IMG/VR virus record: IMGVR_UViG_3300032105_000097
Span: 1-20,530 of that record
DNA length: 20,530 nt
Reading direction: 5' to 3' (one strand)
From: a virus
Positions 4,067-15,418 of the stretch are shown in pieces (position 1 is the stretch's first letter; the number at the start of each line of letters is the position of its first letter). Position numbers and translations under genes: made by a program. The notes under the pieces were generated by a model. The model made no database searches, was not told the DNA's origin, and worked only from the letters and a program-made list of their open reading frames with translations.

Positions 4067-4441
4067 ATGACGGTTATCTACGCAGCGGCCTTGAAGACCG
4101 CGCGCATGAACGAGGTCCTGGCGGCGATCGACGCCGGGGCGGGCGCGGGCAAGCTCGAGATCGGCACCTCCGGGATGGCACTGGTGCTCGCCACCATCAC
4201 GCTGGCCGACCCGGCGGGCTCGGTCACCGGCGATGCATTGACGCTCACCATGCCGCAGTCCGACCTCAGCGCGGACGCGGGCGGCATCGCCGCCGAGGCG
4301 CGCATTCGGGACTCGAACAACAACAACGTCGTGACCGAGCTCACGGTCGGCACCGCCGGCACCGACATCGTGCTCGACAACGACAACATCGCGGCCGCCC
4401 AGCAGGTCACGATCAACTCCGCGATCATGACGCATGGCTAA
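4067..4441 (+). CDS. Hypothetical phage protein, accessory gene 1 after portal
   Basis: The 124-residue product begins MTVIYAAALKTARMNEV. The start at 4067 follows the portal stop by one base and has a GAGGAGG-type ribosome site, so the longer frame reaching upstream to 3890 is rejected. The sequence resembles a family of small phage proteins with an LEIGTSGMALVLATITL core and a Thr/Val-rich, probably all-beta second half. The pattern ends in DIVLDNDNIAAAQQVTI. No catalytic motif, signal peptide or membrane segment is seen. I recall this type of protein next to virion surface or fibre genes, but no function is known to me. It overlaps the next gene by eight bases, indicating co-translation. 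A role on the outside of the virion is only a guess from the company it keeps. Confidence 0.7.
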   Translation: MTVIYAAALKTARMNEVLAAIDAGAGAGKLEIGTSGMALVLATITLADPAGSVTGDALTLTMPQSDLSADAGGIAAEARIRDSNNNNVVTELTVGTAGTDIVLDNDNIAAAQQVTINSAIMTHG

Positions 4442-5672
4442 CGAGCGCCTCGCGCCCGATTCGATCCTCGCCTCGAGCAACCTCTCGGGGTCCGTCGCCG
4501 ACATCGACGACGATCCGGATTCGCCGGACGCGAGCTGGTTGACCACGACCGAAGGCGGCGCCTCGGATCTCCGGACCTCCTTCCCGACGCCTTCGAGCGA
4601 CTCGGCCGTGGGCGCCGACCTGCAGGAGAACCGCTGGCAGGTCCGGAAGAATGCGGCCGGCGGCAACGACCCGGCCTATTCGGCCGAGCTCTGGGAGAAC
4701 GGCGCGCTCGTCTCGACGCTCGCCTCGGGCCTGACGGTCTCGAGCACCGCGGGAATCATCGGCTCGGCGACGTGGAACGCCAGCCTGCTGGCCGCCGCGA
4801 ACGGTTCGAACGTCGAGCTGCGCCTGGTCCAGACGGGCGGGCACACCGGCAACCCGAACAATAGGCGCTATCTCGAAATTGGGGCTGTCGAGTGGAACGC
4901 TGAGGTCCAGGAGCCTGGGATTACCGGCGACCTCGCAGCGACAGACCCGGCGGATACGGGCGCGGCCTCGGGCAATGTCCCGGTCGCGGGCGATCTAGCT
5001 ACGGGCGATCCTGCAGATTCGGCCGCGGCTTCGGGAGGGGTGCTCGTCAGCGGAGACGTTGCCGCCGCAGAGTCCGCGGATATTGCGGCGCTCGCCGGCG
5101 GCGCGCTGATTGCCGGCGATCTGGCGGGCTCCGATCCAGCGGATGGACCTGCAATAGCCGGCGCGGTCCTGGTTGCCGGCGGGCTCGCATCGACCGAGAT
5201 CGCGGATCTCTTCGTCGGCGCCGGAGGTATCGTGGTCTCCGGCGCGATCGTCGGCGCGGAAAGCCCCGACAGCTTGGCTTTCGCGGGCGCGGTCCCTGTC
5301 TCCGGCGGTCTCGCCGGCTCCGATCCAGCGGATGGACCTGCAATAGCCGGCGCGGTCCTGGTTGTCGGCGGGCTCGCATCGACCGAGATCGCGGATCTCT
5401 TCGTCGGCGCCGGAGGTATCGTGGTCTCCGGCGCGATCGTCGGCGCGGAAAGCCCCGACAGCTTGGCTTTCGCGGGCGCGGTCCTTGTCTCCGGCGGTCT
5501 CGCCGGCTTCGAGGCTGGAGACCTCTTCGCCGCCGGCGCCCTCGTCAGCGTGATCGCAAGCCAGGTCGCGGCGGCGCAGGCGGGTGATCGGGAGCACACA
5601 GCCACCTGGCAAGAGAGGCGATACCAGGCCCCGAAGCGGGCGCGCGTTCATGTCGCGGAGGACGCGCCATGA
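4434..5672 (+). CDS. Virion-type protein with 21-residue repeat array
   Basis: This is a 412-residue protein in two parts. Residues 1 to about 157 form a probable beta-sandwich (DIDDDPDSPDASWL, ENRWQVRKN, YLEIGAVEWNAE) of a kind found in other phage structural proteins. Residues about 162-371 are ten 21-residue repeats. The loose pattern is V-x-G-x-LA-x-x-x-x-AD-x-x-x-x-AG-x-V-x, with alternating small and hydrophobic residues and an acidic position. The final ~40 residues are basic (RRYQAPKRARVHV). Such arrays may form a beta-solenoid or fibrous stalk, which is inference. It lies between accessory gene 1 (8-bp overlap) and a small gene it overlaps by ATGA. There is no signal peptide or enzyme motif. 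Codon use in the repeat part is more AT-tolerant than in the flanks, suggesting separate origin. Likely a fibre-like or decorating surface protein; function is unproven. Confidence 0.75.
   Translation: MANERLAPDSILASSNLSGSVADIDDDPDSPDASWLTTTEGGASDLRTSFPTPSSDSAVGADLQENRWQVRKNAAGGNDPAYSAELWENGALVSTLASGLTVSSTAGIIGSATWNASLLAAANGSNVELRLVQTGGHTGNPNNRRYLEIGAVEWNAEVQEPGITGDLAATDPADTGAASGNVPVAGDLATGDPADSAAASGGVLVSGDVAAAESADIAALAGGALIAGDLAGSDPADGPAIAGAVLVAGGLASTEIADLFVGAGGIVVSGAIVGAESPDSLAFAGAVPVSGGLAGSDPADGPAIAGAVLVVGGLASTEIADLFVGAGGIVVSGAIVGAESPDSLAFAGAVLVSGGLAGFEAGDLFAAGALVSVIASQVAAAQAGDREHTATWQERRYQAPKRARVHVAEDAP
5127..5504 (+). repeat. 189-bp tandem duplication inside the repeat protein
   Basis: Two copies of 189 bp lie back to back (5127-5315 and 5316-5504). 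Reading across them I see only two substitutions, one near the GTTG(C/T)CGG position and one at GTCC(C/T)TGT. The unit equals three of the 21-residue (63-bp) protein repeats, so it keeps frame. A diverged continuation begins at 5505. The near identity compared with the diverged neighbouring repeats points to a recent expansion. Confidence 0.93.
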
Positions 5673-11567: not shown

Positions 11568-12176
11568 ATGCCCACCAATGTTCAGCCCTACGAGATCATC
11601 CTCGCGCCGTTCACCGCCTACTGGGCGCCGACCGGCGAGGCCTTCCCGGCGATCGACGCGGCGCCGGCCGGCAACTGGCAGCTGATCGGCAAGTCCGGCG
11701 ACCGGAACTATTCGGAAGAAGGCATCACGGTCCGGCATTCCCAGACGGTGGAGCTGATCCGAACCCTGGGCTCGACCGGCCCGCGCAAGGCCTCGCGCAC
11801 CGAGGAGATATTCTCGATCTCCTTCACGCTGTTCGATATGAGACTTGAACAGTACCGCCTGGCGATCAACCTCAACACCGTGGCGGTGACGGCGGCCGGC
11901 ACCGGCACCGCCGGCTTCAAGGAGCTGCCGCTCTACCGCGGCGTCCAGGTCGCCACCCACGCGCTGCTGCTGCGCGGCATTTCGCCGGAAGGCGACGGCT
12001 GGAACGCGCAGTACGAGGTGCCCTATTGCTTCCATTCGGGCTCGCCCGAGCCGGTCTTCCGCAAGGGGCAGCCGGCCGGCCTGGCGCTCGATTTCACGGT
12101 CATCGAAGACCCCAACGCGGCCGCGGCGGCCGAGCGCTTCGGCGCTGGGAAGGTGCAGCACCAGGATCCGCTTTGA
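11568..12176 (+). CDS. Major tail tube protein
   Basis: The 202-residue product has the best ribosome site in the window (AAGGAGG, 11554-11560, seven bases before ATG), as expected for an abundant structural protein. Strand-rich segments such as NWQLIGKSGDRNYSEEGITV and VELIRTLGSTGPRKASRTEE, followed by FSISFTLFDMRLEQYRLAI, fit the siphovirus tube fold. It stacks as hexameric rings to form the non-contractile tail. No sheath gene follows, which supports a siphovirus. The stop shares its last base with the ATG of the small gene at 12176. Confidence 0.85.
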   Translation: MPTNVQPYEIILAPFTAYWAPTGEAFPAIDAAPAGNWQLIGKSGDRNYSEEGITVRHSQTVELIRTLGSTGPRKASRTEEIFSISFTLFDMRLEQYRLAINLNTVAVTAAGTGTAGFKELPLYRGVQVATHALLLRGISPEGDGWNAQYEVPYCFHSGSPEPVFRKGQPAGLALDFTVIEDPNAAAAAERFGAGKVQHQDPL

Positions 12177-12409
12177 TGCACGACCTGGTCACTCAACACC
12201 AGGCGCTGGACGCGCGCGCCCGGCGCCACAAGCGCGAATCGGCGCGGCACCGCACGGCGGCCCGGGACTGCCGCCAGCGCCAGCGCGAGATCGAGGCCGC
12301 CTGCGAGCGCCTCGGCATAACCGTCACCCACGTCCCCCACGTCACCCACATCCGCGGAGAGAACCATCATGGCGGAAGCGAACGAAGCCACCCCCCTTCT
12401 CGATCTTGA
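12176..12409 (+). CDS. Small basic protein between tail tube and chaperone
   Basis: The start is coupled to the tail tube stop as TGATG. Third codon positions are almost all G or C until the frame runs into the chaperone gene, which supports a real gene. The 77-residue product is highly charged and probably helical (ALDARARRHKRESARHRT, RQRQREIEAACERLG), with two Cys (31 and 43) and a His-rich end. I do not recognise a family. The last 41 bases overlap the next gene, and bases 12323-12349 hold a 9-bp triple repeat. It may be a minor tail-assembly factor, which is only a guess. Confidence 0.6.
   Translation: MHDLVTQHQALDARARRHKRESARHRTAARDCRQRQREIEAACERLGITVTHVPHVTHIRGENHHGGSERSHPPSRS
12323..12349 (+). 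repeat. 9-bp tandem repeat, three copies
   Basis: The units gtcacccac, gtcccccac and gtcacccac lie end to end inside the small basic gene. They encode the VTH/VPH/VTH segment, and the unit keeps frame. Confidence 0.85.
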
Positions 12410-12854
12410 GACACTTATCAAGCGGCCGAAGATCGCCATCGACGGCGAGCTTTACGAGATCCTCTCGCCCGACGAGCTCACGGTCGTCGATCATCATCGC
12501 TTCGCGGCCTGGGGCAAGCGCATCGACGCGCTGATGGCCAAGAAGGACCTCACCAAGGCGCAGGAAAAAGAGCTCGGCAAAATCGTGGTCGATCTCGGCG
12601 ACCGGATCATGGTCGGAGTTCCGGAGGCGCTGCGCGCCAAGCTGAGCGATGCGCAACGCATGGCGGTAGCGGAGGTTTTTACGCGGCTCCCGCTGCAGAA
12701 GCGCCTGGCGCGGCTGGCGGGGGCGGAGGCTGTCCTCGGCCAGAACCCGACTGGGGCGAGCTCGTCCCGCGGCTCCAGCATTGCTACGGCGGCGACCCCG
12801 GATGGTGGCTCTTCGGCTGCCCCATCGCCCTCCTCCGCGCCTACGTCGCGATGA
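12369..12854 (+). CDS. Tail assembly chaperone, short (G-like) product
   Basis: The 161-residue zero-frame product has a folded part (LIKRPKIAIDGELYEILSPDEL, then FAAWGKRIDALM and DLGDRIMVGVPEALRAKL) typical of lambda gpG-like chaperones that coat the tape measure protein. From about residue 125 it degenerates to low-complexity Ser/Ala/Pro. This is the appearance of reading the wrong frame of the real downstream coding sequence. The start has GGAGAG seven bases upstream and overlaps the preceding small gene by 41 bases. The short form is probably made most of the time and the frameshifted form occasionally. Confidence 0.8.
   Translation: MAEANEATPLLDLETLIKRPKIAIDGELYEILSPDELTVVDHHRFAAWGKRIDALMAKKDLTKAQEKELGKIVVDLGDRIMVGVPEALRAKLSDAQRMAVAEVFTRLPLQKRLARLAGAEAVLGQNPTGASSSRGSSIATAATPDGGSSAAPSPSSAPTSR
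12674..12680 (+). promoter_or_regulatory. Candidate -1 ribosomal frameshift site GGTTTTT
   Basis: In the chaperone frame this reads G GTT TTT, a heptamer of the G_GUU_UUU type known to support -1 slippage in cardioviruses. It lies upstream of the point where the zero frame loses protein character. A second possible site is the five-G run at 12719-12723 (in frame, G GGG GCG). Which is used cannot be told from sequence alone. Confidence 0.45.
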
Positions 12855-13081
12855 TGCCCCGGCTCCAGGCCGAGGACAGCCTGCGCCGGGCCGAAGCGAC
12901 GGCGCTCGGCTCGGGCGCGCTCGAAGCTTCCGCCGCGCGCCGCCTGGCCTCGGAGCTCCAGCGCCAGGCGCGGGGCGAAGAAGGGCTTGGCGCCGGCCGG
13001 CTAAATCGGGCGGATCCCGCGGCGCTGGCAGCGATCGGCATCGGCGTCACCGTCGTCGAGCCTAGGGCCACCGGGGATTAA
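12680..13081 (+). CDS. Tail assembly chaperone extension (T-like), reached by -1 frameshift
   Basis: The -1 frame is open from the candidate slip site to TAA at 13079-13081 and encodes the T-like part. PDWGELVPRLQHCYGGDPGW leads into a hydrophobic WWLFGCPIALLRAYVAMM, then MPRLQAEDSLRRAEATALG and a small-residue helix. The W/YGGDP/W pattern is typical of T-domain extensions in alphaproteobacterial phages. The first ATG in this frame (12851) lies inside the conserved part, so independent initiation would lose half of the domain. With a slip at 12680 the fusion would have 237 residues (104 zero-frame plus 133). GT-type fusions recruit the tube protein to the tape measure complex. Six bases separate its stop from the tape measure start. 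Confidence 0.78.
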   Translation, partial: YAAPAAEAPGAAGGGGGCPRPEPDWGELVPRLQHCYGGDPGWWLFGCPIALLRAYVAMMPRLQAEDSLRRAEATALGSGALEASAARRLASELQRQARGEEGLGAGRLNRADPAALAAIGIGVTVVEPRATGD

Positions 13082-13087
13082 AAGGTC

Positions 13088-15418
13088 ATGGCCGAACGCC
13101 TCGGCGAAGCCGTCCTCGAGCTGCGCACCGATGACTCGGCGTACCTGCAGGGCGTGGCCAAGGCGCAGGGCCGGGCGCGGGGCCTGGAGAGCGGGCTCCA
13201 GAAGACCGAACGCGCGGCCGAGCGGCTCGGCCGGCGGCTGTCCGATCTCGGCGGCCGCGCCCAGCGCCTCGGCCAGTCGCTCTCGCTCAGGCTGACCGCG
13301 CCGCTCGTTGCCTTGGCCACGGTCGCGGTGCGCGCCTTCGACGTACAGATCCAGGCGGAGCGGCGGCTGGCCGCCGCGATTCGGGCGACCGGCGGCGACG
13401 CCGAGGCGCAGCTCGCGATCTACAAGGAAATCGCCGCGGCGATCCAGCGGCTGACCGTGGTCGGTGACGAGACGACGCTCGCCAACATACAGGTCGCGCG
13501 CTCGATGGGCCTGAGCGCGCAAGCCGCCGCGCGCGCGGCCAAGAACGCCGTCGCCCTCTCCGCCGCCTTCGGCATCAACGCCAACTCGGCGATCCGCTAC
13601 ACCGCGGCGCTCGAAGAGGGCGACACCACGATGCTCAACCGCTACATCCCGACCCTGCGGCTGATCAAGGACGACAGCAAGCGCGCCGCCGAGGCCCAGC
13701 GTATCCTGGCCGCCGGCTTCCTCGTGGCGGTGGCGGCGGCGCAAAGCGGGCTCGGCCCCTTCCGGCAGATGATCAACGACCTCGGCGATCTCCTGGAGCT
13801 CCTGGGCAAGGACCTCATCGACGCCACGCGGCGCACGATAGACAGGATCAAGGAATTCGTGCTGCGGCTTCAGGAACTCTCGCCCGAGGCGCGGCGGACC
13901 GCGCTCGCCATCGGCGCGATCGCCGCGGCGCTCGGCCCGGGCCTGATCGCCCTCGGCCTCTTGGTGCGCGGCCTGGGCTTCGCGCTCGTGGGTGTGGTCG
14001 CGTTCAGCCGCGGGTTCCGGATTGCGATCCGCGTGGTGCTGGTCGAGCTGGCGCTGCTCGCCGCCGCCTTCGCCAGCCCGGTCTTCGCGGCGGCCGCGGC
14101 CGCGACCGCGATCCTGGCCGCCTGGATTCTGTTCAAGGAGACCATCATCGCGACCTCCAAGGCGATCGCCGAGGGCGTCGCTTTCTGGCTGGTGCAGCAG
14201 TTCCGCAACAACGTCGAGCGGCCCTTTCTGGAAGCAATCAACGACCTGATCGAATCGCTGCCCCGGGTCGTGCGCGAGCGCCTCGGCATCGTCAAGATCG
14301 AGATCCCGGTCGAGATCACCGGCGACGCCGGCGAGGTCTTCGCCGAAGGCTTCGCCGAGGCGCGGGCGGCGGCGGCGCGCGAGACGGCGAGGATCGAGGC
14401 CGATTTCGACGCCCTCGTCGCGCGCGTCAAGGCGGCGCTGCCCGAGGGCCTGGCGGAGCTGATCTTCGGTGACTTCGAAGGCGTGCAGCAGGACATCGAG
14501 GCGGCCACGTTCAAGCTGGACGCGATGATCAAACGCCTCACCGGCGCCGCCGCGAAGGCCGGCGGGCTGGGGACGGCCGCGGCGACCGACGTTGAGACCG
14601 ACGCGCTGTTCAATTTCATGGTCGCCCTGGAAAACGAGACCTTCCTGCTGCGCCTCTCCGACGAGGAGCGCGAGGTCCGCACCCGCGTCATCCAGGCCAA
14701 CGCGATCGCGATGCGGGAGGGAAACCTGCTGACCCGGGAGCAGATCGTCCTGATCGAGGCCAACGTGGGGGCGCAGCAGGCCTTGGCCCGGGCGCAGGAG
14801 GAGTCGCGGAAGGCGGAGCGCGAGCGCGCCGCGGCGGCCGCGCAGGCGAACCGCGAGGAAGCGGCCGCGATCCGGCAAATCGCCTTCACGATCGACGGGG
14901 TGCTGGATCAGGCGCTGCGCGGCCACATTCAGTCTTGGAAAGACCTAGGCCGGGTCGCGGTCAGGGCCCTCCAGGACATCCTGAGCAACGCCATCCGCAC
15001 GCAAAGCGTGCTCGGCGGCGGCGGCGGCGGCGGTCTAGGGGGGCTGCTGAGCGGCGCCCTGTCGCTGTTCGGCCTCGGCGGCGGGCCTGGCCTTCTACCG
15101 AATCCTCTCGGCTTCGCGGAGAGCTTCGCCCACGGCGGCTCGCTGATGGTCGGGGGCAGCGGCGGCCCCGACAGCCAGCTGCGCCTGATCCGTGCGTCGC
15201 CCGACGAGCGCATCGACGTTTTGACCCCGGCACAGCAGCGCGGGGGCGGCGGCGTGACCATCACCCAGCACTTCGATTTCCGCGGCGCCGAACCGGGCGT
15301 GTTCGCGCGTGCCCAGGTGTTCAAGGCCGAGATCAAGCGCGAAACCATTGGCGCGGTGACCGAGCTGCTGAATTCCGGCGGCGCCTTCGCCAAGGCCGCC
15401 GGCCGGCGCCGGGGTTGA
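13088..15418 (+). CDS. Tape measure protein
   Basis: The 776-residue product is the longest helical protein here and sits directly after the chaperones, the invariant place of the tail-length ruler. The N-terminus (about 1-90) is helical and charged (LRTDDSAYLQGVAKAQGRA). A central hydrophobic block lies at about 272-360 (ALAIGAIAAALGPGLIALGL, AILAAWILF), which may enter the host membrane. A coiled-coil stretch lies at about 564-600 (ARAQEESRKAERERAAAAAQ). A glycine-rich part near 641-670 includes six GGC codons and GGT at 15014-15034. The end (FAHGGSLMVGGSGGPDSQL, SPDERIDVLTPAQQ) is typical of tape measures. By the rough rule of 0.15 nm per residue the tail would be about 115 nm. Confidence 0.92.
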   Translation: MAERLGEAVLELRTDDSAYLQGVAKAQGRARGLESGLQKTERAAERLGRRLSDLGGRAQRLGQSLSLRLTAPLVALATVAVRAFDVQIQAERRLAAAIRATGGDAEAQLAIYKEIAAAIQRLTVVGDETTLANIQVARSMGLSAQAAARAAKNAVALSAAFGINANSAIRYTAALEEGDTTMLNRYIPTLRLIKDDSKRAAEAQRILAAGFLVAVAAAQSGLGPFRQMINDLGDLLELLGKDLIDATRRTIDRIKEFVLRLQELSPEARRTALAIGAIAAALGPGLIALGLLVRGLGFALVGVVAFSRGFRIAIRVVLVELALLAAAFASPVFAAAAAATAILAAWILFKETIIATSKAIAEGVAFWLVQQFRNNVERPFLEAINDLIESLPRVVRERLGIVKIEIPVEITGDAGEVFAEGFAEARAAAARETARIEADFDALVARVKAALPEGLAELIFGDFEGVQQDIEAATFKLDAMIKRLTGAAAKAGGLGTAAATDVETDALFNFMVALENETFLLRLSDEEREVRTRVIQANAIAMREGNLLTREQIVLIEANVGAQQALARAQEESRKAERERAAAAAQANREEAAAIRQIAFTIDGVLDQALRGHIQSWKDLGRVAVRALQDILSNAIRTQSVLGGGGGGGLGGLLSGALSLFGLGGGPGLLPNPLGFAESFAHGGSLMVGGSGGPDSQLRLIRASPDERIDVLTPAQQRGGGGVTITQHFDFRGAEPGVFARAQVFKAEIKRETIGAVTELLNSGGAFAKAAGRRRG

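What the first reader, a model, noticed from the sequence alone, without database searches (positions are those of the whole stretch)
12660..13081. Probable -1 frameshift producing a G/T-type chaperone fusion
The zero frame becomes low-complexity after about residue 125, while the -1 frame over the same bases encodes a clear T-like domain beginning before any ATG. Candidate slippery sites are GGTTTTT (12674-12680) and the G-run at 12719-12723. If the first is used, it is an unusual, cardiovirus-like heptamer in a bacterial virus.
Basis: partly seen in the sequence, partly recalled or inferred. Interest (0 to 1): 0.65.

Follow-up and report, generated by a model that had tools for sequence, protein, structure and literature searches.

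The report
Phage tail-chaperone ribosomal frameshift signal
This phage very probably makes two tail-building helper proteins from one gene by having some ribosomes slip back one base at a short run of Ts just ahead of an RNA hairpin, a known phage strategy seen here in a large protein family that annotation has missed.

Summary
Gene G (12369-12854, +) lies between the major tail protein and the tape measure gene. The -1 frame over its 3' half is open from 12410 to 13081 and encodes a conserved T domain; its first possible start codon is 12851, inside that domain. Eighty relative loci were collected (68 distinct, 55 below 80% nucleotide identity), and all keep T in the -1 frame of G. In all 55 a slip tetramer T_TT(T/C) sits in phase at the end of the conserved G domain. 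TTT occurs in 50 of 55, against about 10 expected from codon usage. A 10-bp RNA hairpin starts exactly 5 nt downstream, with compensatory changes at 7-10 pairs. A covariance model built without this window finds its hairpin at 12681-12729 (E=1e-7). So the first candidate, G_GTT_TTT (12674-12680), is the slip site. The second, the G-run at 12719-12723, is the hairpin's 3' arm. Most likely product: G1-104 plus 133 T residues (237 aa). The heptamer's 5' half varies (G_GTT, T_GTT, G_GCT, C_CTT), so the signal is tRNA-Phe slippage on U_UUU plus a hairpin. T7 gene 10 already uses a G_GU-type site. New, unannotated member of the lambda-type G/GT kind; no experiment confirms it.

The parts
12369..12854 (+). 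Gene G (tail assembly chaperone, zero frame, 161 aa); residues 1-104 are the conserved domain, the rest is a variable tail
   Evidence: ORF; 53-row alignment; AlphaFold2 model pLDDT 88 whose best viral fold match is named 'Tail assembly chaperone', E=2e-5, TM 0.67/0.69; lies between major tail protein and tape measure protein
12674..12680 (+). Slip heptamer G_GTT_TTT; the conserved core is T_TTT at 12677-12680
   Evidence: In-phase T_TT(T/C) in 55/55 diverged relatives, TTT in 50/55 vs ~10 expected; wobble positions invariant from this point
12681..12685 (+). 5-nt spacer between slip site and hairpin
   Evidence: Hairpin register
12686..12724 (+). Stimulatory RNA hairpin: 5' arm 12686-12695 (GCTCCCGCTG), 3' arm 12715-12724 (TGGCGGGGGC).
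   Evidence: Covariance model built without the window hits 12681-12729, E=1e-7, all 10 pairs formed; covariation in relatives; MFE -27.8 kcal/mol, z -1.39 for the window alone
12680..13081 (+). T part read after the -1 shift (133 aa, YAAPAAEAPGAAGGGGG...DWGELVPRLQ...; conserved domain from about 12746); fusion GT = 104 + 133 = 237 aa
   Evidence: -1 frame open 12410-13081 with no start codon before 12851; 54-row alignment with invariant and near-invariant residues
11568..12176 (+). Major tail protein gene (expected binding partner of the T domain)
   Evidence: PHROG 476/117 major tail protein
13088..15418 (+). Tape measure protein gene (expected client of G and GT)
   Evidence: PHROG 1533/1293 tail length tape measure protein

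Best explanation
The locus is a lambda-type G/GT tail-assembly-chaperone gene expressed by programmed -1 ribosomal frameshifting. Most ribosomes read G to its stop at 12852-12854. A minority pause at the hairpin 12686-12724; tRNA-Phe on UUU (12678-12680) slips back one base onto UUU (12677-12679), and decoding continues UAC (Tyr) into T. The product is GT, 237 aa, in which the first 104 residues are shared with G. By analogy with lambda, G and GT coat the tape measure protein and the T domain recruits the major tail protein. Shown here: frame relation, conserved slip tetramer, covarying hairpin, gene order, conserved protein domains. Inferred: that the shift happens, that only the Phe tRNA must re-pair, the efficiency, and the chaperone role.
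For: Same -1 arrangement in every relative. In-phase T_TT(T/C) in 55/55 vs 11.1 in synonymous re-draws; TTT 50/55 vs 9.98 expected. Hairpin 5 nt downstream: mean folding z -2.82 over 55 loci (offset +3, 40 nt) vs +0.18 upstream; 47/55 form at least 8 of 10 pairs vs 14% of control positions; compensatory changes at 10/12 pairs (40 loci) and 7/10 pairs (34 loci), 0/500 shuffles, slid controls far lower. A model without the window finds it at E=1e-7, next best 0.018. No ATG/GTG/TTG in the T frame before 12851, and none from 60 nt upstream of the slip site to the T motif in 46/55 loci. Position between major tail protein and tape measure genes. G fold match to a protein named tail assembly chaperone.
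Against: No direct evidence of a fused product. The window's own hairpin is only mildly more stable than dinucleotide shuffles of this GC-rich sequence (z -1.39). Five of 55 loci have TTC, and the most distant loci have a weaker or shifted hairpin. The T domain model has no significant fold match, and neither domain has a Pfam or PHROG assignment for the window proteins.
Confidence: 0.93

Rival explanations
1. A single-base sequencing or assembly error split one continuous gene into two frames.
For: A T-homopolymer is a classic site for indel errors.
Against: 68 distinct loci from isolates, bacterial genomes and metagenomes all show the same -1 relation, with different T-run lengths and different heptamers. 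The synonymous T conservation and the covarying hairpin would be unexplained.
Confidence: 0.01
2. The shift occurs at the G-run 12719-12723 (G_GGG_GCG) instead.
For: P-site GGG can re-pair in -1.
Against: Not conserved as a run; relatives have GGCGGGAGC or similar there. The bases form the 3' arm of the conserved hairpin. A-site GCG to GGC mismatches.
Confidence: 0.02
3. RNA polymerase slips on the T run (transcriptional slippage) and a pool of +/- base mRNAs is translated.
For: A T5 run followed by a hairpin; slippage would also give both products.
Against: Many relatives have only TTTT or TTT before another base; reported transcriptional realignment involves A runs above 7 or T runs above 8 (PMC3711429). 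Conservation is codon-phased and the spacer is the ribosomal one.
Confidence: 0.03
4. No fusion: T is a separate protein started inside the -1 frame (annotated that way in StopSmel, Aussie and Mwe-Yong1).
For: GenBank annotation begins T at an internal Met near MLPRL; in the window the ATG at 12851 overlaps G's TGA.
Against: That start lies downstream of most of the conserved T motif (DWGE..PRLQ..YGG.P.WWL...ALVRAY), and most loci have no usable start before the motif. It does not explain the slip tetramer or hairpin. A small amount of internal initiation in addition is not excluded.
Confidence: 0.03

Closest known systems
Phage lambda gpG/gpGT (tail assembly chaperones; Xu, Hendrix and Duda 2004, reviewed in PMC5009743)
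   Same: Gene order major tail protein - G - T - tape measure; low-level -1 shift makes G plus a GT fusion; T has no start of its own
   Different: Lambda's heptamer (recalled from memory) is the canonical tandem-slip G_GGA_AAG; here it is an N_NNU_UUU site plus a covarying hairpin. No sequence family link found; G here keeps a 57-aa zero-frame tail after the slip site
Phage T7 gene 10A/10B frameshift (heptamer GGUUUUC recalled from memory; G_GU-type site cited in PMC5009743)
   Same: Almost the same slip heptamer on bacterial ribosomes; one relative group (L060/L065) has exactly GGTTTTC
   Different: T7's is in the major capsid gene, not a tail chaperone; different proteins
Cardiovirus (EMCV) -1 frameshift, GGUUUUU
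   Same: Identical heptamer
   Different: Eukaryotic ribosomes, with a novel 3' stimulatory element and dependence on viral infection (PMC5009743); here a simple hairpin 5 nt downstream, and the 5' half of the heptamer is not conserved. Convergent at most
PRFect 'twofive' and 'twoonefour' slip motifs in annotated phages (PMC10885494)
   Same: GGTTTTT fits 'two-five' and GGCTTTT fits 'two-one-four' by the meaning of the names (the figure defining them was not readable)
   Different: Those are predicted motifs without the comparative hairpin evidence shown here

Membership tests
Lambda-type G/GT tail assembly chaperone genes | Located between the major tail protein and tape measure genes | tested here: met
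   PHROG matches at 11568-12176 and 13088-15418; same order annotated in three isolates
Lambda-type G/GT tail assembly chaperone genes | Second ORF in the -1 frame overlapping the first, without its own start before its domain | tested here: met
Lambda-type G/GT tail assembly chaperone genes | Conserved slip sequence in phase | tested here: met
   55/55 loci
Lambda-type G/GT tail assembly chaperone genes | Sequence or fold relation of G and T to known tail chaperones | tested here: inconclusive
   G fold best match is named tail assembly chaperone (E=2e-5) and one relative hits PHROG 1442 'tail assembly chaperone' at 0.0076; T has no significant match
Lambda-type G/GT tail assembly chaperone genes | Fusion protein made and needed for tail assembly; G binds tape measure protein, T binds tail tube protein | not testable with these tools
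   Needs mass spectrometry, reporter and mutant phage
Canonical X_XXY_YYZ tandem-slippage sites | Both P- and A-site tRNAs re-pair in the -1 frame | tested here: not met
   A-site UUU to UUU re-pairs fully; P-site GUU to GGU mismatches at position 2 (2 of 3 letters identical), and relatives have U_GUU, C_CUU, G_GCU and others
-1 frameshift cassettes with a 3' stimulatory structure | Stable structure beginning about 5-9 nt after the slip site | tested here: met
   Hairpin starts 5 nt after the UUU codon; covariation; held-out detection
Cardiovirus-type frameshift | Distinct 3' stimulator and infection dependence | tested here: not met
   The stimulator found here is a covarying hairpin 5 nt downstream, the ordinary kind; infection dependence was not testable

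The most novel reading that the evidence does not exclude
A broad, unannotated tail-chaperone family (phages and prophages of Alphaproteobacteria and others) in which the frameshift cassette is one-tRNA slippage on U_UU(U/C) without productive P-site re-pairing, driven by a hairpin 5 nt downstream that is encoded simultaneously in two reading frames.
Probability: 0.6. Interest if true: 0.45.

Novelty: new member of a known kind. Interest (0 to 1): 0.38.

Why it matters
It defines a frameshift signal for a family found in at least 68 distinct loci, where isolate annotations show two 'hypothetical proteins' with a truncated T and where none of the profile libraries tried names the window's proteins. 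The natural variation in the 5' half of the heptamer (G_GUU, U_GUU, G_GCU, C_CUU, and a few others) with a fixed U_UUU and hairpin is a ready-made series for asking whether P-site re-pairing matters in bacterial -1 frameshifting.

Tried and rejected
DNA-level search of phages with the window's G-T region: no match. G alone as a query in viral contigs: none. T alone in genome contigs: none until an alignment was used. Pfam/PHROG for the window's G and T: only a sub-threshold DUF3375 match on G, dismissed. Rfam: nothing. Shine-Dalgarno-like stimulator upstream: a GA-rich stretch abuts the slip site in 14/55 loci but sits immediately next to it rather than about 10 nt away, so not claimed. G fold against PDB: no hit. 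T fold against viral models: nothing significant. The covariance model recovers few of the most distant held-out loci, so the hairpin is claimed for the main group, not for every relative. Internal start of T, sequencing error, transcriptional slippage and the G-run slip site were considered and rejected.

Full report
What is there. The window carries a siphovirus-like head-tail module. The major tail protein (11568-12176) and tape measure protein (13088-15418) are recognised by PHROGs. Between them lies ORF G, 12369-12854, 161 aa. The -1 frame is open from 12410 to 13081, and its first ATG/GTG/TTG is 12851.

Relatives. The T region as a query gave three viral contigs and three isolates: Microcystis phage Mwe-Yong1 and Sinorhizobium phages StopSmel and Aussie. 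An alignment of these reached 68 viral loci (some found before) and 8 bacterial genome loci, among them Stappia, Sphingomonas, Phyllobacterium and Sphingobium. After removing duplicates there are 68 distinct loci, 55 of them below 80% nucleotide identity to one another. One of the 68, L048, has no assigned slip position and is not among the 55. In all of them T is in the -1 frame of G. The isolates' records annotate G and T as two hypothetical proteins, with T begun at an internal methionine that cuts off most of the conserved motif DWGE..PRLQ..YGG.P.WWL...ALVRAY.

The slip site. At the end of the conserved G domain (...VEVF) all 55 loci have an in-frame T followed by TTT (50) or TTC (5). Codon use in these mostly 63-70% GC loci predicts about 10 TTT, and about 6 T at the preceding wobble position where 55 are seen. 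Re-drawing synonymous codons gives 11.1 +/- 2.8 loci with any T_TT(T/C) in the same interval and 3.4 +/- 1.6 with T_TTT. I chose the site by this pattern, so the re-draw, which has the same freedom, is the fair control. In 29 closely comparable loci the wobble positions rise from about 0.3-0.7 identity upstream to 1.0 exactly at the GTT and TTT codons. The first half of the heptamer is not fixed: G_GTT 18, T_GTT 10, G_GCT 8, C_CTT 4 with TTT, and others. Only the Phe tRNA can re-pair cleanly in every member, hence the one-tRNA reading. This is an inference; the sequence does not show which tRNA moves.

The hairpin. Folding the 40 nt that begin 3 nt after TTT gives a mean z of -2.82 over 55 loci, against +0.18 for a stretch upstream. 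Individual folds share one helix that begins 5 nt after TTT. Ten fixed pair positions are at least 8/10 paired in 47/55 loci, against 14% at random positions (the partner offset was optimised in both). Forty aligned loci show changes on both sides at 10 of 12 pairs, above all 500 shuffles and all slid registers. Thirty-four ungapped loci give 96.8% paired cells and 7 of 10 pairs with double changes. A covariance model from those 34, without the window, finds 12681-12729 as the best hit in the window at E=1e-7 with all ten pairs, next best 0.018. The window's hairpin alone is unremarkable for its composition (z -1.39); the case rests on comparison. The model fails on most of the distant loci left out of it.

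Proteins. G residues 1-104 align across 53 loci. The AlphaFold2 model (pLDDT 88) has as best viral fold match a protein named tail assembly chaperone (E=2e-5, TM 0.67/0.69). T has no significant match. Neither window protein has a Pfam or PHROG family of its own. The chaperone role is therefore inferred from gene order, the recoding architecture and the G fold.

Mechanism. The review by Atkins and colleagues (PMC5009743) describes lambda gpG/gpGT, the low-level -1 shift and the binding of G to the tape measure protein and T to the tail protein. It gives Z_ZZN as the minimal -1 slip element and lists phage T7 gene 10 and cardioviruses as G_GU-type intermediates. Reported tail-chaperone shift efficiencies in another family were 6-7% (PMC3711429). 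By analogy I expect a minority of ribosomes to make GT (237 aa) here.

Verdict. A -1 frameshift making a G/T fusion is strongly supported and ordinary in kind. What is new is the family, unnamed in the libraries searched, its U-tetramer-plus-hairpin signal, and the variable P-site codon. No experiment was possible.

Noticed in passing
window 12176-12409 (+): Small ORF whose ATG overlaps the major tail protein stop (TGATG) and which overlaps the start of G in another frame. Homologous ORFs lie at the same place in 31 of 68 distinct loci, including StopSmel and Aussie, where no gene is annotated there.
   Followed up: partly
window 12672-12674 and the equivalent codon in relatives: The codon before the slip codons: Asp before GTT is GAT in 10 of 10 loci, and Asp before CTT is GAC in 4 of 4, although GAT is 34% of Asp codons overall. 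Might be shared ancestry or a constraint on the base before the P-site codon; unexplained.
   Followed up: no
window 5113-5512 within ORF 4434-5672: 189-bp tandem repeat, 2.1 copies, 97% identical, in a glycine/alanine-rich repetitive protein of the head module.
   Followed up: no
L005, L006, L007 (Mwe-Yong1, StopSmel, Aussie): Annotated T genes begin at an internal Met after most of the conserved T motif, and no joined G-T product is annotated: probable misannotation.
   Followed up: yes
L013 in-frame -110 relative to the T anchor: A second in-frame G_GTT_TTT about 45 nt upstream of the conserved slip site; not shared by relatives.
   Followed up: no
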